Positions 44,802-54,722 of a DNA stretch of 60,316 bases are shown here, piece after piece. The stretch's first letter is position 1, and each line of letters begins with the position of its first letter. This DNA comes from a virus, in IMG/VR virus record IMGVR_UViG_3300018080_000195, positions 1 to 60,316 of that record; one strand, written 5' to 3'. The notes under the pieces were generated by a model that was not told the origin of the DNA, ran no database searches, and saw nothing but the letters and a program-made list of their open reading frames with translations. The position numbers were made by a program, and so were the translations under genes.

Positions 44802-45118
44802 TCATATGCGGACTGTGTGCAAACTTCCGGCTCAGTGTTGACGATAAGTACTTCTTCACACAAACCAGGACGGAGGATGCAACAACTGTCGCGCTGTTCA
44901 AGAAATGCTCGAAACACGGACTCGTACACGAAACATTCGTCGGCTGTGATGACTACGAACCAACGAAGTCGTTCTACTGCGCTAGACTTGAGTGCTACAT
45001 AGGAACAACGATCTGCCTTGCGAATCAGACACAGTGCAAGGACGAATGTGAAGAGTGCGTCCAAGGAGAACTTGTGATTGAAGCAATGAGAGGTGTGCAA
45101 TGCTACGAATTGAAGTGA
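44798..45118 (+). CDS. Cysteine-rich protein
   Basis: 106 aa, ATGA overlap. MIICGLCANFRL, KCSKHG, YCARLECYIGTTIC and CKDECEECVQG give about 11 Cys arranged as two zinc sites. Not recognised. Overlaps the helicase start by 19 bp. Confidence 0.7.
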   Translation: MIICGLCANFRLSVDDKYFFTQTRTEDATTVALFKKCSKHGLVHETFVGCDDYEPTKSFYCARLECYIGTTICLANQTQCKDECEECVQGELVIEAMRGVQCYELK

Positions 45119-46512
45119 TTGACGCTGTTCACAGTCGCGTCACGGAGGATGACGCTCAAGTCATCCAAAACTGCTTGTCCTATCCTGCTGCATTCTGGAG
45201 GCCGCAGACTGTAGCTATAAACAAGAGGACAGGGCAGCCGATCAAGAAGAAAGTCCGAATGGACTACATGAAGGACGTTTTCACATCAAGGAGAAACGGC
45301 TATAAGTACTTCCACACTGGACTCGTTCCTCGAATACAACAGTACTGTGCTGAGATAGATTGTCCTTCCTCCGTCCTTAATCCCATGAGTGATATTGAGC
45401 TTGACTTCTCACAGCCGTATCTATCAGACATAACATTGAGAGAGGATCAACTCAAACTTGTATTTGATGCTTGCAAAAACCGGAGAGGAATAATCCAAGC
45501 TCCTACTGGAACAGGAAAGACTGTCATACAGATGGCACTCCGCTCCGCATTCGCTCACTACAGAACGCTCATCCTTGCACATACAAAGAGCATCGTGGAG
45601 CAGACGTTCGCAGAACTCAACAAGCACGGCTTTAGCAATGTCCAGATCATCGGAGCAGGACACTCTCATCAGCGCGGTCTCTTCGGAGACACAGTAGTCG
45701 CTACAATGCAGAGTTTCGTCAAGATTCCAGCAATGGAGCGGGCAGACTACTTCGAAGTCGTGCTTGTGGACGAAGCGCACCATGTTGTACGTCCGGAAGG
45801 AGTATACGCAAAGATACTCCGCACACTCCTCAGTCCTATCCGACTTGGATTCACTGCGACTGTTCCAACAGCTACAGAGGCAGTCCTGACGATGGAGGGC
45901 CACCTCGGGCCCGTCATCGGACAGCAAACGATACAGGAAGCAGCAGAATTGGAGATCCTAGCAAAGCCGCGGATCCGATTGCTCAAGTCTACATACAGCA
46001 ATCGAGTACACGACATCCGGAGATACGAAGACGTATACGTTGAAGGGATCGTGATGAACCGTCAACGGAACCGGATGATTGCTGAGTGTGTTCAGGATTA
46101 TGTGAAGGAAGGAAAGACAGTGCTGATCCTAGTGACTCGACTTGAGCACGGGGACAATCTCTCACACATACTGAACACAGTGCTTGGAGTTCCGACAGAG
46201 TTCGTGGAAGGAAGCACGGAAAGCGATGCACGAGAGATCGTCAAGGAAGCAATGATTCAGAAGGAACAGAAGTGTGTCATAGCTACAGCAGTATGGAGGG
46301 AGGGCATAAACATCCCGTCCCTGGACGTTGTGATCAACGCTTGCGGAGGAAAGTCGGAGATCATGACCCTGCAAGCGATAGGACGTGGACTCCGGAAGAC
46401 TGACGAGAAGGATGAAGTCGTGATTGTGGACATCTTTGACCCGTCACATTACTATCTTGTCAATCATTTCGGACAGAGAGTTACACTCTACATGGATCAA
46501 GGATGGATGTGA
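45100..46512 (+). CDS. SF2 DNA/RNA helicase (UvsW/RadD-like)
   Basis: 470 aa. Walker A QAPTGTGKTVIQMALR at about 131-146, motif II VDEAHHVVR, motif III LGFTATVP, motif VI QAIGRGLRK. N-terminal 130 residues form an accessory domain as in UvsW. Such helicases process recombination and stalled-fork intermediates in phages (family knowledge). Overlaps the upstream Cys-rich gene. Confidence 0.93.
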   Translation: MLRIEVIDAVHSRVTEDDAQVIQNCLSYPAAFWRPQTVAINKRTGQPIKKKVRMDYMKDVFTSRRNGYKYFHTGLVPRIQQYCAEIDCPSSVLNPMSDIELDFSQPYLSDITLREDQLKLVFDACKNRRGIIQAPTGTGKTVIQMALRSAFAHYRTLILAHTKSIVEQTFAELNKHGFSNVQIIGAGHSHQRGLFGDTVVATMQSFVKIPAMERADYFEVVLVDEAHHVVRPEGVYAKILRTLLSPIRLGFTATVPTATEAVLTMEGHLGPVIGQQTIQEAAELEILAKPRIRLLKSTYSNRVHDIRRYEDVYVEGIVMNRQRNRMIAECVQDYVKEGKTVLILVTRLEHGDNLSHILNTVLGVPTEFVEGSTESDAREIVKEAMIQKEQKCVIATAVWREGINIPSLDVVINACGGKSEIMTLQAIGRGLRKTDEKDEVVIVDIFDPSHYYLVNHFGQRVTLYMDQGWM

Positions 46513-46745
46513 TGGGCACAACAGACTATAAAATGGGCACTGGAAAAGTAACTGTAATTTTTACGGACGGCTGTGTACTGAAAATGGACGCAGCAAATGC
46601 CACCATCTCAATGAATCCTGAGAATCTACACAACGATGCTATCATCACACTCGTATCCGGTTCATTTACAATAAGGACACCGCACCAAGTTACAAAATGG
46701 AACAAAGAAGAAGGCGTTGTGTACAAACATTGGACGGATGAGTAG
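46512..46745 (+). CDS. Small protein after helicase
   Basis: 77 aa. ATG at 46512 overlaps the helicase stop (TGATG); AAGGATGG precedes. Beta-rich: KVTVIFTDGCVLKMDAANAT and IITLVSGSFTIRTP. Not recognised. Confidence 0.65.
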   Translation: MGTTDYKMGTGKVTVIFTDGCVLKMDAANATISMNPENLHNDAIITLVSGSFTIRTPHQVTKWNKEEGVVYKHWTDE

Positions 46746-46759
46746 TAGAGGGAGAACCC

Positions 46760-47047
46760 ATGGAAAGACGAATCTTCAAGTACAAGTTAATGGCATCTTC
46801 TCTAATCTTCGTAAACCCAACAATTGTCGAACTGGAAATACCAGAGTTTGCAACATTTTTAAGTGTACAGATGCAAGACAACTCCCTTGTGGTGTGGGCA
46901 TCTGTACTCCCAGAAGAAAAGTATGTAAAAAGAATATTTCACATTGTCGGAACGGGAGGAGCAGAGCCGGAAAGACCATTCTTTTACCTCGGAACCGCGC
47001 AGGATCACAACCTCGTTTATCATGTATTCTATGAATGGGAAAAGTAA
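46760..47047 (+). CDS. DUF7352-like conserved phage protein
   Basis: 95 aa. MERRIFKYKLMASSLIF, ATFLSVQMQDNSLVVWASV and the late HIVGTGGAEPERPFFYLGTA, then YHVFYE, follow the layout of a common small phage protein family (DUF7352-like). Function unknown. Confidence 0.6.
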   Translation: MERRIFKYKLMASSLIFVNPTIVELEIPEFATFLSVQMQDNSLVVWASVLPEEKYVKRIFHIVGTGGAEPERPFFYLGTAQDHNLVYHVFYEWEK

Positions 47048-47058
47048 GGAGACTGGAA

Positions 47059-47253
47059 ATGCATCTCGTATTGAAGCGGCAAGACACTCCTGGCAGACCC
47101 GCGCTGTGTCCAGTATGTAAAGTACGGATAGCGAAGAGCGAACTCCGACTGGAGACTCACTTGTACGGTGAGCAGAGCAGGCAGTTCCACCTCTCATGTG
47201 CCAAGATTCTTGCAGCAAAGATCATCAATCTTGTGGAGACGGAAAGGAGGTGA
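47059..47253 (+). CDS. Zinc-finger mini-protein
   Basis: 64 aa from ATG at 47059 (AAGGAGACTGG). ALCPVCKVRIAKSEL ... HLYGEQSRQFHLSCAK is CxxC...H...HxxC, as in PARP- or HNH-type zinc fingers. Probably binds nucleic acid. Confidence 0.68.
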   Translation: MHLVLKRQDTPGRPALCPVCKVRIAKSELRLETHLYGEQSRQFHLSCAKILAAKIINLVETERR

Positions 47254-47255
47254 GC

Positions 47256-47477
47256 ATGGGGAGAATCAAAGACTGGGTAAAAAGGAAGGAGGACACGATG
47301 AAGCCAAGAAGCAAGGAAGAACTCAGATCCAAGGACGTGGCACACATCCTCGACATCTCTCCGGATGACGTGATCGACATCGCCCGGAGAGGCCATCTCA
47401 AAGGACGCAAAGACGGACGCTTCTGGAGATTCACGCTCAAGGACGTGAGACAGTATCAGAAGCAGTTCGGGGACTAG
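47256..47477 (+). CDS. MerR/excisionase-type helix-turn-helix protein
   Basis: 73 aa from ATG at 47256 (AAAGGAGGTGAGC). LRSKDVAHILDISPDDVIDI followed by ARRGHLKGRKDGRFWRFTLKD is the HTH_17 pattern of excisionases and small MerR-like proteins. DNA-binding regulator or directionality-type factor; no integrase is visible in the window. Confidence 0.75.
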   Translation: MGRIKDWVKRKEDTMKPRSKEELRSKDVAHILDISPDDVIDIARRGHLKGRKDGRFWRFTLKDVRQYQKQFGD

Positions 47478-47515
47478 CAGCACGATACTACTTCGGAGGA
47501 AGGAGGTGATATCCA

Positions 47516-47614
47516 GTGAGCCAAAGGGCAGCCCTGGTGCTTACGACTATGTTCCTGATCGTGACGGCACTACTTACGTTCCGCGGCGTAACTATAGGTA
47601 ACGCGGGTGGGTAA
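47516..47614 (+). CDS. 32-aa membrane peptide, GTG start
   Basis: GTG at 47516 lies 8 nt after AAGGAGGTGATAT. Encodes RAALVLTTMFLIVTALLTF, one membrane helix, then RGVTIGNAGG. Strong ribosome site and membrane character support a real small gene. Confidence 0.55.
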   Translation: MSQRAALVLTTMFLIVTALLTFRGVTIGNAGG

Positions 47615-47692
47615 GTAAGTAAGGAGGGAGTCGTTACCTAACTTAATCTGACCAAACACGATACGACGAAACGAAATAGAATAGGAAGGAGG

Positions 47693-47804
47693 ACATCACT
47701 CAACTGGATTGGATCTAACTTTATCCAACTTCACCGGACGGGACAAGAATTTCTCCACTATACATGACGATGCCTAATTAGACAATACAGTACAATACGA
47801 AACA
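47693..47804 (+). repeat. Pentanucleotide-phased A(C/T)NNN array, block 1
   Basis: From 47693 to 47748 an A followed by C or T occurs every 5 nt in twelve successive pentamers (8 AC, 3 AT, 1 AA). After a phase shift another run follows from 47757 to 47802 (8 AC in 10 steps). The three free bases vary, so this is not a simple tandem repeat and cannot come from codons. A weaker version starts at 47651. Confidence 0.85.
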
Positions 47805-47826
47805 ACATGGAAAAGGGAGAAGAACA

Positions 47827-48474
47827 ATGCAAGGAATCGCTAAATGCCGATACAATACGAATGTACTTGGAACAGCTCCAGCGAAAGGCTATACCCAAAT
47901 TCTTCTCGACTATATCGAAGGAAGAATGGACAAGGAGTTCCTAACATTCGCACAGCAAGCGGCAAAAAAGAATCAAACGATTGAGAAAGTGGCAACGGAC
48001 ATCCTCAGTCTATTTCACAGAGACAATGACGGCAATATTGTCGTCGGAAGCTGGATGATGAAACGCTGTCTGATCGACACAGGAATGATTTATTTCAAGT
48101 CGAAAGAGCACAAGGAACATCCAATCAAGAAAGTCATTCCTTATCTCGTTCAAGTCGTTGAGCCGTACTACATCAAACTCACAAATGGAAATGGAGAAGC
48201 GATACGGGAGCCCATAGGAGTAGACACATACGCGGTAAACTCCAAAGGTCGGAACTTCTTCAAAGCATATGAGTATCTTCCACCAGGAACGGAGTTTGAG
48301 TTTGAGTTCCATGTAGACGACGAAGTTCTCACGAAAGAAGTCTGTGAATGGTGGGTCCACAAAGCCGGAGTGGTCGGAAACTACGCTTTCCGAGAAAGAT
48401 TCGGAAAATTCGACATTCTCAAACTAGAGATAAGCGGTGGAGAGAAGGAAGAAGAGACTCAAGAAGCCGCTTAA
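47827..48474 (+). CDS. RAMP-like beta-rich protein (candidate RNA-binding)
   Basis: 215 aa, GGGAG upstream of ATG at 47827. Late region YEYLPPGTEFEFEFHVDDEV and the glycine-containing end AGVVGNYAFRERFGKFDILK resemble RRM-fold RAMP proteins (Cas7/Csm3 style: PxGxxFxF ... G..G..RxxFGxF). VVGSWMMKRCLIDTGMIYF may match the central helix. No other cas-like gene and no CRISPR array are present. It is enclosed by phased ACNNN arrays, which could be its RNA target. Similarity is seen by eye only. Confidence 0.4.
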   Translation: MQGIAKCRYNTNVLGTAPAKGYTQILLDYIEGRMDKEFLTFAQQAAKKNQTIEKVATDILSLFHRDNDGNIVVGSWMMKRCLIDTGMIYFKSKEHKEHPIKKVIPYLVQVVEPYYIKLTNGNGEAIREPIGVDTYAVNSKGRNFFKAYEYLPPGTEFEFEFHVDDEVLTKEVCEWWVHKAGVVGNYAFRERFGKFDILKLEISGGEKEEETQEAA

Positions 48475-48489
48475 ATCTAATTGTATTGA

Positions 48490-48617
48490 ACGCAACGAGA
48501 CGAGACTCGATGCCACACCATGACAATACCCTACGCTGCCCTACTCGAAAATACGGAACGGTACGTGACAACAATACCCAACGAAACAAGACGAGTCGTG
48601 ACAGCATCTAACAAAAC
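48490..48617 (+). repeat. Pentanucleotide-phased A(C/T)NNN array, block 2
   Basis: In the 160-bp gap after the RAMP-like gene A(C/T/A) keeps 5-nt register at 48490-48525, then in a shifted phase at 48528-48568, then at 48571-48616, with 9 of 10 steps starting with A in the last run. Same pattern as blocks 1 and 3. The gap ends at the ribosome site of the 92-aa gene. Confidence 0.85.
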
Positions 48618-48634
48618 AGAGAAGGAGAAAAAAC

Positions 48635-48913
48635 ATGGAAGAAATCAAAGTCGAAAAAGTAATGAATCGAAAGAAGATTGCAGACGCAATCCACGGCTCC
48701 ATCGACGCAGGACTCAAGCTTCTCGACAAAGAAGAAGTCAGCAGAGAAGACATGCTTAGGGTCAACGTCATGCGGGCCCTCGCAACGAACATCAATGCAG
48801 GAGTAGCAATGATTCAACAGGAAACGAGTCAGGAAAGACTGACTCTTGTTCAAGAGAGAATGAAACAGTTAGGGTATCCTGTCGCCGCACAAATAGGAGG
48901 AAAGACGGAGTAA
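48635..48913 (+). CDS. Small helical protein between arrays
   Basis: 92 aa with AAGGAGAAAAAAC. Helical: NRKKIADAIHGSIDAGLKLL, then DMLRVNVMRALATNINAGVAM. Could be an oligomerising partner of the RAMP-like protein, given that both genes sit inside the array region (inference). No motif recognised. Confidence 0.65.
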   Translation: MEEIKVEKVMNRKKIADAIHGSIDAGLKLLDKEEVSREDMLRVNVMRALATNINAGVAMIQQETSQERLTLVQERMKQLGYPVAAQIGGKTE

Positions 48914-48915
48914 GT

Positions 48916-49191
48916 ACAGCACCACTGGACGTAACGAAACACCACCTGACAGAGTAGGACCATACCTTACGTTACTTCATATCTTTGCCTGATTCTGATG
49001 AACTGTACTCGACACAGCACCAGACATCTCCATGCGGTATATAACGGTACCCTAGTAGCATCAAACCATTACGCTACAATACAGTATTTAACCTAACATA
49101 ACAGTACTCGAATTAGTCAGCGGTACGGTACAATACTATACATTACAACACAGTACAAGATAAAATTCTACGGTACAAGACGATACGCTAC
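48916..49191 (+). repeat. Pentanucleotide-phased A(C/T)NNN array, block 3
   Basis: Fills nearly the whole 289-bp gap before primase. Register runs: 48929-48979 (10 of 11 steps A-initial), 49071-49111 (9 of 9), 49125-49190 (14 of 14: 12 AC and 2 AT). The middle part 48980-49060 is weaker. No ORF or stable hairpin explains it. The next gene lacks a normal ribosome site. Confidence 0.88.
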
Positions 49192-49202
49192 TTGGCCCTA
49201 TT

Positions 49203-50126
49203 ATGAACCTCCATCTCTTCGACATCTGTAAGTATCTTGACTCAGTAGGGGTCCCATACTCCACGGAGAGCAAGCACACAACGGACGATTGGATCAACTT
49301 ACAGTGTCCGTTCTGCCCAGGAGGGGACCCCTCCGATCATCTTGGAATTCATCTCGACAAGAAGAGCATGAACTGTTGGAGATGTGGAACGACCGGAACA
49401 GCAATCAAGCTGATCATGAAGCTTGAGAGAATTGGACTACAGCAAGCGTTAGCAAAAATTGCTAGTCAGACATCGCACAGAAAGGACATAACGCAAAAAT
49501 GGAGCACTCTCGTAAGCGAGAGACGTATTTCCTACATGAGCATCGAGCTTCCAAAGGAGTCTCAGAACACTCTGCTCGACGCTCATCGCAGTTTTCTCGA
49601 AGAGAGACGATTCGATCCAGACCGCATATTCTCCAAGTATGATCTCCGATGCGTCCAACATTCCGTCAAGTGGAAGCACAGACTGATTATCCCGATCAAG
49701 AGACATAGCAAACTTGTAAGCTGGACTAGCAGAGACGTGACTGGAGAATCACATCTCAAGTACAAGACTGCTTCGAATGAGGAGAGCATCGTTCCGGCAA
49801 AGGAGACACTCTACAACTTGGACAGCGTAAAGGACACGGTGATCATCACGGAAGGACCGCTTGACGTATGGAGAATAGGAGACGGAGCAGTCTGCACTTA
49901 CGGCACACAGTACACGAAGACCCAGCTTCTATTGCTCTCAAAGATGAGGAGAGCGTTCGTACTTTTCGACTCAGACGCGGAAAATCCGGCAAAAAATTTA
50001 GGCGCGGATTTGGGATTGTTCGTGAATCAAACCGAGATTTTGTTTTTAGAACAAGGAGATCCTGCGGACATGTCGGAGGATGATGTCCATCATCTCCGGA
50101 GAGAAATCTTCGGAAAGATTTTTTAA
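49203..50126 (+). CDS. DnaG-type primase
   Basis: 307 aa. N-terminal CHC2 zinc domain: LQCPFCPGGDPSDHLG ... MNCWRCGTTGTAIKL. Toprim region: TVIITEGPLDVWRIGDGAV (EGxxD) and FVLFDSDAENPAKN (DxD). Short compared with bacterial DnaG because the helicase-binding tail is missing. No Shine-Dalgarno before ATG 49203, unlike nearly all neighbours; the leader is ACNNN array 3. Confidence 0.92.
   Translation: MNLHLFDICKYLDSVGVPYSTESKHTTDDWINLQCPFCPGGDPSDHLGIHLDKKSMNCWRCGTTGTAIKLIMKLERIGLQQALAKIASQTSHRKDITQKWSTLVSERRISYMSIELPKESQNTLLDAHRSFLEERRFDPDRIFSKYDLRCVQHSVKWKHRLIIPIKRHSKLVSWTSRDVTGESHLKYKTASNEESIVPAKETLYNLDSVKDTVIITEGPLDVWRIGDGAVCTYGTQYTKTQLLLLSKMRRAFVLFDSDAENPAKNLGADLGLFVNQTEILFLEQGDPADMSEDDVHHLRREIFGKIF
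50104..50121 (+). terminator. Terminator at primase end
   Basis: AAATCTT (50104-50110), loop CGGA, AAGATTT (50115-50121), then more T to 50124. Overlaps the primase stop. A small but classical hairpin-T signal. Confidence 0.6.
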
Positions 50127-50135
50127 TACCTGTTC

Positions 50136-50164
50136 TTGACATGATTTTGTGCTTGTGATATGTT
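50136..50164 (+). promoter_or_regulatory. Sigma-A promoter with extended -10, before initiator
   Basis: TTGACA (50136-50141), 17 bp, TATGTT (50159-50164) with TGA just before it (extended TGn -10). About 50 bp before the initiator start. Confidence 0.72.
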
Positions 50165-50212
50165 CGTTAGCCTCTCCAAAAAACGCTTTCCGTGAAGGAG
50201 CAAAGCGTTCCG

Positions 50213-51451
50213 ATGCAAGAGTGGCACTCTGATCTCATAATCCCTAATGAGATTGTTTCCGAGCGCAGCTTGGATCTCACTGACAAATTCCTCATTGGAA
50301 TCATCCGAACGGTACCTGAGATATCTGTTGAGCAGATAGTCGGAGTGCTTGGAGATAAGCTTCCGAAGCAGGAAATCTCCAAGAGACTCAAGAACTTAGC
50401 AGCTTTAAGGTACATAGTTGAGGAGAAAAACGGAAGCGGTTACACTATATTCAAGATCAAGAATATTTTGACTCTTAATATTAAGAGTCAAAAGAGTCAA
50501 ACAATTCAAGATCAAGAAAATAGTGTGCCGGAGAAAAAACGCATCATTTCGCGTCGAAAATTGGACCAGAATCCGAATGCACTAATATACTCTGAAAGAG
50601 TATATAAAGAAAAAAATAATAGTATGATAGAAAATAGTGTATCTACTCCGTTAGGAGTAGATACACTAGACGATCCTGAACAGGCAAACAAAAAGTTCAT
50701 TCCTTCAATTGTCCAACCTTTCCTTGATGTATGGTTCATTCATGATCTTTACATCTCCGGAGACGGAACGAAAGCATTTGCTGAAGACATTGAAGCATTG
50801 AAGAAGTTAATCACTGGCAGATTCTTCTCAACTTCCTCCGGACGAAATGTTCCTTTCCAATATCTTGATAGGAAGTTTACGCTCGAAGAGTGGACTCATG
50901 CTGTCAAGACAATGCACAAGATAGCGTTCGATCCAAGCTATCGTCCTGCAAACAAATCAAAGTTGCAGAAGATGAGAATCAAATCGTTCCTCTACAACGA
51001 GTATACGAACTTCCAGACTAAGGAGAGAACGAATAGCACTTTCCTATTGTGCTTAGAGAACAGAGTACTTTTCCCGAAGTCCGGAAGGAGTAAGTTTTCT
51101 CCGGAGGAGGACTTGCATCCAAATATGACAGCGAGACTCATTCACTTGTTCGCAGAGTACAGAAAGGAGGTGCGTGGACAGTACGAATACAAGCCGAGCG
51201 ATGAGGAAATGGACAGATTCAAAATGGCAAGCAGTAGGATCTCCAAGTTTTTCGATGATAGACAGAAGGACATCATAGATTATCACAATGCGTTCAGTGT
51301 ACAAAATGCAAAGACGGACTTCACATGGGCCGCAGTCCTTCACGACATCAAGAACTCGGACTTCGAACTCACTCCAGGGTTCCTCTGCTCCGATACGACT
51401 TTTGAGAAGAGATTGCCGAACTATCTCACATTCAAGAGAATGATGCGATGA
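50213..51451 (+). CDS. Replication initiator/helicase loader (winged-helix)
   Basis: 412 aa from ATG at 50213 (AAGGAG upstream; GTG at 50192 is an alternative). N-terminal winged helix: LTDKFLIGIIRTVPEISVEQ and LPKQEISKRLKNLAALRYIV. The middle is low-complexity and carries palindromes in its DNA. The C-terminal half is helical with DLYISGDGTKAFAEDIEALK. Position between primase and DnaB-like helicase fits an initiator or loader such as DnaD/lambda O-like proteins. Confidence 0.68.
   Translation: MQEWHSDLIIPNEIVSERSLDLTDKFLIGIIRTVPEISVEQIVGVLGDKLPKQEISKRLKNLAALRYIVEEKNGSGYTIFKIKNILTLNIKSQKSQTIQDQENSVPEKKRIISRRKLDQNPNALIYSERVYKEKNNSMIENSVSTPLGVDTLDDPEQANKKFIPSIVQPFLDVWFIHDLYISGDGTKAFAEDIEALKKLITGRFFSTSSGRNVPFQYLDRKFTLEEWTHAVKTMHKIAFDPSYRPANKSKLQKMRIKSFLYNEYTNFQTKERTNSTFLLCLENRVLFPKSGRSKFSPEEDLHPNMTARLIHLFAEYRKEVRGQYEYKPSDEEMDRFKMASSRISKFFDDRQKDIIDYHNAFSVQNAKTDFTWAAVLHDIKNSDFELTPGFLCSDTTFEKRLPNYLTFKRMMR
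50466..50668. repeat. Large palindromes inside initiator gene (origin candidate)
   Basis: A perfect 28-bp palindrome (50466-50493, centre TTAATATTAA), a 9-bp inverted repeat (50585-50593 with 50597-50605) and a 15-bp perfect hairpin with 4-nt loop (50635-50649 with 50654-50668) lie in AT-rich coding DNA of the low-complexity linker. Initiator-internal origins are known from lambda O. Confidence 0.65.
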
Positions 51452-51460
51452 TACGCACAG

Positions 51461-53023
51461 ATGACGGACGGAATAATGTCAGCATTGAAGAGACGAAGGA
51501 TCGACTCGACTGTCGAGAAGCGCATTGTTACTGGAATGATCGTTTCAAAGAGGTTTTTGCAGGAAGTCCAACCGCTAATCAATCTGGACTACTTCGAGAA
51601 CGACTTCACACGCACAGTCGCGGACTGGGCTCTCCAATACTTCCTCCACTATGACGACTCCTCAAAGGAGCACATAGGGGACATCTACACCCGTGAATCA
51701 GCAAAGCTAAAGGAAGAAGACGCAGAACTCATATCCAAGTTCCTGACTGACATCTCTTCGAAGTATGAGCAGGACTCGGAGATCAACGTAGACTATCTGC
51801 TTGATCAGACGATGGACTACTTCAAGAAGCGGGAGCTTGAGATAACCTCTTCGAACATCCAGTACTTGCTTGACAATAACCAGATAGAGCAAGCGGAAGA
51901 TCAGATCATCCGGTTCAGCAAGATCTCCCGTCTCACGTCTAGCTGGATCAATCCTTTCGAACTTGAACACGTTGACGAAGTATTCGAGAAGGACGAAGTT
52001 CCATTCCTCCGCTTTCCAGGCAGACTCGGACGCTATCTCGGAACATTCGAACGCGGTTGGCTCGTCGGAATCTCCGCTACGTTCAAGAAAGGAAAGACGT
52101 GGATGCTCCAAGAGTTCGCAGTCCTCGGCATCCGCAGGAGACTCAAAGTAGCGTTCTTCAGCTTGGAGATGCCGCAGAAGAAGATGAATGAGCGTATCTA
52201 CAAGCGACTGATAGGAGCAGCAACAAAGGATGATGAAAGGGACGACGATCTGTACCCTGTGTTTGATTGTAATCTGAATCAGTTGAACACTTGTGAGAAT
52301 ACGGACAGGACGAACAACGTAAGACTGTTGCTGGAGGATGGAAATAAGCCGGAGTATGGAAGAGCTAGGATGTACAGGACGTGTACACTTTGCAGAGGAA
52401 ACTTGGACAGCGACTATCAACCCGCGTTCTGGCTCCAAGAGATCAAACACAAGGATGAGGACAAGAAGTATAAGCTCCCCCTGTGGGACCGCAGGACAGT
52501 ACGAAAGAAGATCACTAGCTATGGAGAGAACTTCTCACATCTGCTGCGGATGAAAACGTACCCGAGATTCTCTGCTAACATAAGAGACATAGAACGGGAT
52601 CTCGATATCCTACAGCAGACGGAAGAGTTTGTGCCGGACATTATCATCATAGATTACGCGGACATATTGAAGCCGGAGCATGAAGGACAGAAAGGAGTTG
52701 AAAAAGAGGATGAGACATGGATGAGACTGTCTCAGCTAGGAGGAACGCGACATGCGCTAGTCGTTACAGCTACACAATTGAGAAAGTCCGCTCTGAAGAA
52801 AGGACAAGTCGATCAATCCGACACGGCACTCTGGGTCGGAAAGCTTGCCCATGTGGATGCAATGTTGACTTTAAATCAAACTGAGGACGAAAAGAAATGC
52901 AGAGTTTCAAGAGTCGGTATTATGGTCCATCGCTACGAAGAGTTTTCGGAAGAAAGCTCTTGCTACATCTTGCAAAAACTCAGAAGAGGACAGTTCAATC
53001 TGGACTCAGAAATTCGACGTTAG
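51461..53023 (+). CDS. DnaB-type replicative helicase with zinc insertion
   Basis: 520 aa. N-terminal helical domain (about 1-170); RecA core with Walker A-like GISATFKKGKTWMLQEFA (about 203-220), FFSLEMPQKKMNERI, IIIIDYADILKP (Walker B) and VVTATQLRKSALKKG. Between them FDCNLNQLNTCEN ... YRTCTLCRGN (about 267-313) forms a likely zinc finger not found in bacterial DnaB. Start ATG 51461 lacks a strong site. Confidence 0.88.
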   Translation: MTDGIMSALKRRRIDSTVEKRIVTGMIVSKRFLQEVQPLINLDYFENDFTRTVADWALQYFLHYDDSSKEHIGDIYTRESAKLKEEDAELISKFLTDISSKYEQDSEINVDYLLDQTMDYFKKRELEITSSNIQYLLDNNQIEQAEDQIIRFSKISRLTSSWINPFELEHVDEVFEKDEVPFLRFPGRLGRYLGTFERGWLVGISATFKKGKTWMLQEFAVLGIRRRLKVAFFSLEMPQKKMNERIYKRLIGAATKDDERDDDLYPVFDCNLNQLNTCENTDRTNNVRLLLEDGNKPEYGRARMYRTCTLCRGNLDSDYQPAFWLQEIKHKDEDKKYKLPLWDRRTVRKKITSYGENFSHLLRMKTYPRFSANIRDIERDLDILQQTEEFVPDIIIIDYADILKPEHEGQKGVEKEDETWMRLSQLGGTRHALVVTATQLRKSALKKGQVDQSDTALWVGKLAHVDAMLTLNQTEDEKKCRVSRVGIMVHRYEEFSEESSCYILQKLRRGQFNLDSEIRR

Positions 53024-53076
53024 TTCAGCTACTTACATTCCTCTCAAATAATTTTCCGGATAATTTCATTTTTCGC

Positions 53077-53106
53077 TTGACAGCATATCCTTTGGCGATG
53101 TATGAA
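53077..53106 (+). promoter_or_regulatory. Promoter after helicase
   Basis: TTGACA (53077-53082), 18 bp, TATGAA (53101-53106), in the 128-bp spacer before the Lys-rich protein gene. Confidence 0.55.
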
Positions 53107-53151
53107 GCACTATTCGCTGGATCATCTTTTAACCTAAGAGAGGAGAGTAAG

Positions 53152-53727
53152 ATGAAGCCGATTGATGAAATCAACATGGACAAACTGATCGAGTGCTGCA
53201 AGCAAGTCAACGAGGTATCCGATGACAAGATAGAAGTCGTTGGGACCTCCACTCCGGACTTGATCAAAGCATTCACACTGCGCCTTGAGAGCATGACGGA
53301 TGAGCAGCAGGACAAGGTGCAGGAAGCCGTCGCGTTCTACAACGATCTGTACGCTGACGAGCAAGTGACAGATCCTCCACCTCCTCCTCCGGACGAAAAG
53401 AAGGAAGAGAAACAGAAGAGTGATCCTGTGAAGAGGAACGTAGCGACTACGAAGAAGAAGAAGGAGAAACCCGCAGCGAAGAAGAAGAAGAAGGAGAAAG
53501 AGCCCGCAGAGAAGAAACCCCCGAAAGAGAAGGACGAGTTCGGCTACACTGTCGGAACGCTGAACAACAAGTTCATGCAAGCGATCAAGCAGAAGCCGAT
53601 GACGATGAAGGAAGTCAAGGACGAAGCGTGGAACGAGAAGAGCGTCACGTTCTACGAGATCTTCAAGAAGGAGCGGGTAGCCGGAAGAGCGTTCAAGGAC
53701 AAAGATGGAAAGATGTCTGTGCGATGA
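53152..53727 (+). CDS. Lysine/proline-rich linker protein
   Basis: 191 aa from ATG at 53152 (GAGAGGAGAG). Helical N-terminal domain (IDEINMDKLIECCKQVNEVS), then Pro-rich and strongly basic low-complexity linker (about 80-130), then a C-terminal domain with TVGTLNNKFMQAIKQKPMTM resembling a small winged helix. Could bind DNA in replication. ATGA overlap with the methyltransferase. Confidence 0.65.
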   Translation: MKPIDEINMDKLIECCKQVNEVSDDKIEVVGTSTPDLIKAFTLRLESMTDEQQDKVQEAVAFYNDLYADEQVTDPPPPPPDEKKEEKQKSDPVKRNVATTKKKKEKPAAKKKKKEKEPAEKKPPKEKDEFGYTVGTLNNKFMQAIKQKPMTMKEVKDEAWNEKSVTFYEIFKKERVAGRAFKDKDGKMSVR

Positions 53728-54722
53728 TCGAGACGAAGGAGTACCCTCCGAGAGAGTATCTGTTTCCAGAGGAAAAGGAAATAGACGAGACAGCTAAGGG
53801 GTTGACCTTCGACGCACTGAAGAAGAGTCATGATCGTAGAAGCAATCTCATAGACAAACTCGGCTACGTTCCTACTTCCATCTTCAAGCGAGACAGCAAG
53901 GAACAATTGTATCTCACACAAGATACGTTCATTGAAGAGAGAGGGGGTGGTTACGAGAAGCACAACAAGGAAATGAAGGGGGACCTTCGCAGCTTGGACA
54001 GAGACAAAAACGAATTTCTGCTTGTCAATACTGGATTGCGGATACAAGGCCGGAAAGGGTACTTATCACGTTTTCCTCAGAATGTCGGACGCATCCTGAT
54101 TGAAGTCCATTGTCCAGAGCAAGGAACGATCTACGATCCATTCGCAGGTCACAACAGCAGGATGCAGTTAGCGTATCGTTGCAAACGCAACTACATCGGA
54201 GTGGACATCTGCGCTGAGTACATGAAACTCAATCGGGAACTCCGACAGAAACTCCTCGAAAGACCGGTCTTCGAAGGAGAGTACAAGCCGACACTTGAGT
54301 TGATCGAAGGAAGTTCCGCGAAAGTGGATCTTCCAGACAACTGGGCAGACTTTACGATCACATCCCCACCTTACTGGGATCTGGAGTATTACGGACCAGA
54401 GGAAGAGCAACTTGGATTGGACAAAACGTATGAGGAATTCCTTGAAGCTTTGTATCCGCATATTGTTGAGAACGAGAGAGTGCTGAAGCCCGGAGCGTTC
54501 TGCATCTGGTGCATCAATGACTTCCGGAAGGACAAGAAGTATCACCCGTACCACATAGACTTGTACAAGCTGTTCGAAGTCGCAGGATTCGAAGCGTTCA
54601 ACATCTACATCATTGATCTCGTCAGCGTTGTGCAAGCGTCCTTTGTGCGGGACATAGTGGATCACAAAATCATTCCAAAACAACACGAATATGTACTCGT
54701 ATTCCGAAAGAGAGGAGTGTGA
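53724..54722 (+). CDS. DNA methyltransferase (TSPPYW motif)
   Basis: 332 aa from ATG at 53724. ITSPPYWDLEYYGP is the catalytic motif IV (SPPYW, typical of N4-cytosine or N6-adenine enzymes); YDPFAGHNSRMQLAYR is motif I (DPFAGxxS). Order I before IV suggests the gamma/alpha-like or circularly permuted class. N-terminal 110 residues may be a target-recognition part. Sits among replication genes. Confidence 0.85.
   Translation: MIETKEYPPREYLFPEEKEIDETAKGLTFDALKKSHDRRSNLIDKLGYVPTSIFKRDSKEQLYLTQDTFIEERGGGYEKHNKEMKGDLRSLDRDKNEFLLVNTGLRIQGRKGYLSRFPQNVGRILIEVHCPEQGTIYDPFAGHNSRMQLAYRCKRNYIGVDICAEYMKLNRELRQKLLERPVFEGEYKPTLELIEGSSAKVDLPDNWADFTITSPPYWDLEYYGPEEEQLGLDKTYEEFLEALYPHIVENERVLKPGAFCIWCINDFRKDKKYHPYHIDLYKLFEVAGFEAFNIYIIDLVSVVQASFVRDIVDHKIIPKQHEYVLVFRKRGV

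What the first reader, a model, noticed from the sequence alone, without database searches (positions are those of the whole stretch)
47693..49191. Degenerate five-base periodic array A(C/T)NNN in three gene gaps
In three consecutive intergenic spaces a dinucleotide AC (sometimes AT) recurs exactly every 5 nt for long runs: 12 of 12 steps at 47693-47748, 10 of 11 at 48929-48979, and 14 of 14 at 49125-49190. The other three bases vary freely, so it is neither a microsatellite nor coding (period 3). I know of no described phage element like this. The nearest analogies are TRAP-binding RNA, where a trinucleotide repeats about every 5 nt around a protein ring, and DnaA-trios in origins. It may be an RNA or ssDNA scaffold for a ring or filament protein that takes one subunit per 5 nt.
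Basis: partly seen in the sequence, partly recalled or inferred. Interest (0 to 1): 0.95.

Follow-up and report, generated by a model that had tools for sequence, protein, structure and literature searches.

The report
Divergent phage RNA-guide arrays (VIPR system)
The five-base pattern is real, and it marks a phage's own RNA-guide genes: chains of guide RNA built from five-base units, next to the gene for a small CRISPR-like protein that very probably wraps them, in a system (VIPR) first described in 2026, of which this is an unusually divergent example.

Summary
It fills three gaps (47636-47811, 48475-48620, 48914-49194), about nine blocks of 9-14 units, and occurs nowhere else in the 60 kb. 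No dinucleotide-preserving shuffle reached it (0 of 2000 per gap). A scan of IMG/VR found degenerate period-5 arrays in about 50 further loci, and 37 of those hold a relative of the Vipr protein of phage SUSP1. The 215-aa protein between the gaps is such a relative: E 1.4e-9 with a profile that excludes it, the RAMP glycine loop invariant, and a predicted fold whose best solved matches are Csm3/Cas7-type RAMPs. So the arrays are most likely vrRNA guides of a VIPR system (preprint PMC13142463). What differs from the published GGY/NN code: only two bases are fixed here (A, then C or T), the usual third fixed base is free, the Vipr is the most divergent of 39 compared, and no conserved 3' tail is evident. 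I found no target for any array, so DNA targeting by this copy is inferred, not shown.

The parts
47636..47685 (+). array block A1, 10 units of A(C/T)NNN (putative vrRNA)
47693..47747 (+). array block A2, 11 units
47757..47811 (+). array block A3, 11 units with one off-pattern unit (GCCTA)
47827..48474 (+). 215-aa Vipr homologue (RAMP; G-loop G181 G184 R189 G193)
48475..48519 (+). array block B1, 9 units
48523..48567 (+). array block B2, 9 units (two off-pattern)
48571..48620 (+). array block B3, 10 units (one off-pattern)
48635..48913 (+). 92-aa protein of unknown family; candidate accessory (vap) by position only
   Evidence: no family match; no resemblance to SUSP1 vap1
48924..48983 (+). 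array block C1, 12 units (one off-pattern)
49002..49058 (+). decayed or slipped array stretch between C1 and C2
49060..49110 (+). array block C2, about 10 units with one 1-nt slip
49125..49194 (+). array block C3, 14 units without a break

Best explanation
The locus is a VIPR (Viral Interference Programmable Repeat) system carried by a phage inside its replication module. The gaps are transcribed in the direction of the genes into vrRNA-like guides of 9-14 pentameric units, x-A-Y-N-N (Y = C or T). Vipr subunits (the 215-aa RAMP) bind the fixed A-Y of successive units and build a filament of one subunit per 5 nt. Each subunit holds the scaffold bases away from pairing and presents the variable bases, which together pick a gapped DNA target in a competing phage or other element and repress it. 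Shown here: the period, its confinement to these gaps, the Vipr homology and predicted RAMP fold, the association in dozens of other phages, and the strand shared with vipr. Inferred, mostly from the preprint: transcription, RNA binding, filament, target rule and repression.
For: Arrays in three gaps far above shuffles. An array-only pattern scan of IMG/VR returned 119 loci; 37 of 50 with degenerate arrays carry a Vipr homologue, against 2 of 69 microsatellite-like loci (Fisher p 2e-17), mostly within 80 nt of an array. SUSP1 itself shows GGYNN arrays on the vipr strand beside ALH47069, as published. The window 215-aa: BLAST against SUSP1 Vipr 26% over 147 aa, E 2e-4; profile without it E 1.4e-9; four invariant G-loop residues across 38 proteins. 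Profile A1 hits PDB 36pp 'SUSP1 Vipr protein' at 8.6e-25 and Csm5 at 0.018. AlphaFold model pLDDT 70.7; its best matches are Csm3 and other Cas7-type RAMPs, best Z 9.8 over 170 residues, and Foldseek also ranks Csm/Cmr chains first. A-C on the vipr strand is the rule in the starred 21-protein clade beside which the window protein falls. Block lengths of 9-14 units fit the published 9-16.
Against: Only two bases are fixed rather than three. No conserved 3' tail, promoter or terminator was found. No target was found for four arrays in IMG/VR and two in the genome collection or for all arrays read contiguously in phages and plasmids. The 92-aa gene matches no known accessory protein. The window Vipr misses PHROG 4652, which 37 of 38 aligned proteins match. 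Foldseek matches are above E 0.001.
Confidence: 0.93

Rival explanations
1. The arrays are a period-5 protein-binding scaffold (RNA or DNA) for the Vipr-like protein but not guides: for example an autoregulatory or origin-linked filament site, with the variable bases meaningless.
For: The locus sits between helicase and primase genes; no targets found; one scaffold position is free, so the variable bases could be drifting.
Against: Multiple blocks of the published guide length, the same architecture as SUSP1, where guiding was demonstrated, and hypervariable pairs in every relative.
Confidence: 0.05
2. Decayed pentanucleotide microsatellite or mutational by-product.
For: Tandem pentamers can arise by slippage; many hits of the same pattern scan were true microsatellites.
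Against: 8-12 different triplets among 10-14 units while A and C/T persist, confinement to gaps flanking vipr, and 37 of 50 degenerate arrays lying with vipr.
Confidence: 0.01
3. Replication-origin element such as DnaA-trio-like or iteron repeats.
For: Adjacent to primase, an O-like initiator and DnaB.
Against: Period 5, not 3; arrays follow the vipr gene, not replication genes: none of seven neighbouring window proteins has a detectable relative in the other array loci.
Confidence: 0.01

Closest known systems
VIPR of Escherichia phage SUSP1 (PMC13142463; KT454805.2 27.5-29.5 kb; Vipr ALH47069; PDB 36pp)
   Same: Small phage-encoded RAMP homologue with arrays of pentameric units in flanking gaps on the vipr strand, 9-16 units, two variable bases after a fixed R-Y.
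   Different: SUSP1 units are GGY/NN (first G sometimes A or T) with shared tails; here A-Y/NN with a free first base, no evident tail, Vipr about 26% identical.
xAC/NN VIPR clade of uncultured phages (L087, L049, L075, L091, L060, L020, L116 and others)
   Same: A-C fixed on the vipr strand; the window Vipr falls beside this clade (98/93 support for the 21 others).
   Different: These keep a phage-specific third fixed base (G, A or C); the window does not, and its Vipr is on a branch of 4.1 changes per site.
Csm3/Cas7 backbone RAMPs of type III CRISPR
   Same: Predicted fold, glycine loop, repeated subunits on a guide RNA (for Csm3 from general knowledge).
   Different: No CRISPR array or cas genes among the genes annotated around the arrays; 5-nt period instead of Cas7's 6-nt; single small gene.
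TRAP-binding RNA
   Same: Triplet-like motif about every 5 nt (general knowledge).
   Different: No TRAP homologue; RAMP fold instead; 9-14 units with a C/T alternative.

Membership tests
VIPR system (PMC13142463) | Vipr protein: small RAMP homologue with RRM core and glycine loop | tested here: met
VIPR system (PMC13142463) | Long intergenic stretches flanking vipr that hold tandem 5-nt units of fixed scaffold plus variable bases (GGY/NN 'or a related consensus') | tested here: met
   consensus A-Y-N-N-x
VIPR system (PMC13142463) | 9-16 units per vrRNA | tested here: met
   blocks of 9-14 units; true RNA ends unknown
VIPR system (PMC13142463) | vap accessory gene next to vipr | tested here: inconclusive
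   92-aa gene in place, no similarity to SUSP1 vap1 or any family
VIPR system (PMC13142463) | DNA target read by variable pairs with a 1-nt skip | tested here: inconclusive
   no target found; two chance-level hits
VIPR system (PMC13142463) | vrRNA expressed and bound by Vipr | not testable with these tools
   needs small-RNA sequencing and pull-down
SUSP1-like (type II) VIPR | strict GGY/NN units | tested here: not met
   A in place of the second G in nearly all units, first base free
SUSP1-like (type II) VIPR | invariable structured 3' tail after each array | tested here: not met
   no repeated or structured flank found; filed therefore as VIPR, not type II
CRISPR-Cas class 1 | CRISPR repeat-spacer array and cas genes | tested here: not met
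   no CRISPR-like direct repeats in 47100-49210; the ten proteins scanned from 45100-54722 show no cas gene

The most novel reading that the evidence does not exclude
This lineage uses a reduced scaffold of two fixed bases (A-Y), so that three bases per unit are free and may all pair with the target: an RNA with gaps that reads a contiguous DNA sequence, unlike the published rule in which the target itself is gapped. L017/L042 (N-G-T-N-N) would be an independent case.
Probability: 0.15. Interest if true: 0.85.

Novelty: new variant of a known kind. Interest (0 to 1): 0.55.

Why it matters
VIPR was reported in April 2026 as a phage-encoded, possibly pre-CRISPR, RNA-guided DNA-recognition system. 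This copy shows that the pentameric code reaches a much more divergent Vipr and survives with only two constant bases per unit. That helps to say which bases the protein reads and which the target reads, and lets the array pattern alone find VIPR loci that protein-family searches miss.

Tried and rejected
Close relatives of the 215-aa protein and of the primase in IMG/VR: none; 215-aa protein and the 609-aa protein in named phages: none. Single-sequence AlphaFold of the 215-aa protein was useless (pLDDT 36). Target hits for block C3 (L122, L123): outer units do not match and L122 lies in another frame of a tape-measure-like gene, so chance. Blocks A1, A2, C1 of the window and the L017 array: no target in IMG/VR; A2 and C3: none in the species genomes. 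All arrays against 1.2 Mb of fetched loci at skips 0-3: nothing above the controls (skip 3 only finds the arrays themselves). Triplets between the A-Y pairs read much like codons in several blocks, but too few units could form a stop to be informative and between-position information is not significant, so this was not used as evidence. Rfam: no match in the window or in 13 related loci. Promoter and terminator scans at chance level. SUSP1 Vipr (36pp) does not appear in the fold lists, which cover entries released up to 8 April 2026.

Full report
Observation. It is there. AC-AC pairs at lag 5 run at 4.0 to 4.8 times expectation in each of three gaps, with further peaks at 10 and 15, and not in the flanking genes. 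Against 2000 dinucleotide-preserving shuffles per gap, none reached the observed longest runs (11, 10, 14) or lag-5 counts (15, 13, 29). Parsed into units it gives about nine blocks of 9-14 pentamers separated by short breaks or phase shifts. In 95 units the first base is A in 91, the second C in 75 and T in 19; the other three are nearly free, except that the last is rarely C (9 of 95; p 0.0001 against the window's C content, 0.009 against that of the two middle bases).

Not unique. About 50 are degenerate arrays, often several per phage, each phage with its own third fixed base: GACNN, CACNN, AACNN, or ACCNN, which is GGTNN on the other strand.

Identity. A literature search found one match: PMC13142463 (bioRxiv, April 2026, version of June 2026), which describes VIPR: a phage-encoded RAMP protein, Vipr, with vrRNAs of 9-16 YNNGG units whose variable NN pairs read a target with one skipped base (no second paper). 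I fetched SUSP1 (KT454805.2) and confirmed GGYNN arrays on the strand of the 195-aa gene ALH47069.

The protein. SUSP1 Vipr alone, by phmmer, reaches 33 of the array loci, the window among them at a weak E of 0.018; iterated, 40 proteins. A profile built without the window protein finds it at E 1.4e-9 among 7287 ORFs. Thirty-eight proteins align with G181, G184, R189 and G193 (window numbering) invariant, the RAMP glycine loop. That alignment matches the solved SUSP1 Vipr (36pp) at 8.6e-25 and Csm5 at 0.018. The AlphaFold model from the alignment (pLDDT 70.7) has Csm3 and other Cas7-type RAMPs as its best structural matches (Z up to 9.8, 170 residues); Z of 7-8 is common for unrelated models, so it is the uniformity of the list that counts. 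Vipr occurs in 37 of 50 degenerate-array loci and 2 of 69 others.

The code. Written on the vipr strand, relatives fall into GGT/NN (SUSP1 kind) and xAC/NN with x fixed as G, C or A per phage. In SUSP1 x is G, sometimes A or T, never C in 54 units (counted). A general form x-R-Y-N-N covers both: R is G in the first group, A in the second. In the window R is A and x is free but rarely C. L017 and L042 are free at x in the G-T group, so the loss of the fixed x probably happened more than once. The protein tree has the xAC group as a supported clade of 21 (98/93; L019 and L089 in it carry the arrays on the opposite strand) and the window on a very long branch beside it; its exact place is unsure.

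What is not shown. I found no target. Exact 1-skip patterns from blocks C3, A2, A1 and C1 in IMG/VR and from A2 and C3 in the species genomes gave nothing beyond two chance hits; contiguous readings found nothing in phages or plasmids. No tail, promoter or ribozyme was seen. The 92-aa neighbour is an accessory gene only by position. The host is unknown: the DnaB-like protein has only remote relatives (about 24% identity) among named phages.

Verdict. A real VIPR locus with a divergent protein and a reduced scaffold. The mechanism (filament of Vipr on pentameric guide RNA, gapped reading of DNA, repression of competitors) is carried over from the preprint. Whether the free x is neutral, as I think likelier, or pairs as a third guide base is open and can be tested directly. 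Whether one of the preprint's seven types already covers this two-base scaffold could not be checked, because its supplement was not readable here.

Noticed in passing
L017:589-718, L042:2897-2976: Arrays of the form N-G-T-N-N on the vipr strand, free at the usual third fixed base; L017 has 26 unbroken units whose triplets read as an open frame of 26 codons.
   Followed up: partly
alignment A1 (38 Vipr proteins): PHROG 4652, listed without function, matches 37 of 38 Vipr proteins (all but the window's) and so appears to be the Vipr family.
   Followed up: yes
L012, L059, L064, L088: Clear AACNN or GACNN arrays with no Vipr found in the stretch held; the protein may lie outside the stretch or be more divergent.
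   Followed up: no
L021, L087, L088: Several GACNN blocks end in ACAAG ACAAG, often followed by AYTTN, a possible conserved 3' end of the guide.
   Followed up: no
L019, L036, L089, L111, L057, L006: Arrays whose A-C strand is opposite to vipr although some of these Viprs sit in the xAC clade; either antisense transcription or another consensus (GTC/GTT NN).
   Followed up: partly
47196-47477: HTH_17/excisionase-like 93-aa protein directly upstream of the first array; could be a regulator of the locus.
   Followed up: no
48523-48535, 48571-48583, 48959-48971: Near-identical 13-mers ACAATACCCTACG, ACAATACCCAACG, ACCATACCTTACG, two of them at block starts: shared guide sequence or a 5' handle.
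   Followed up: no
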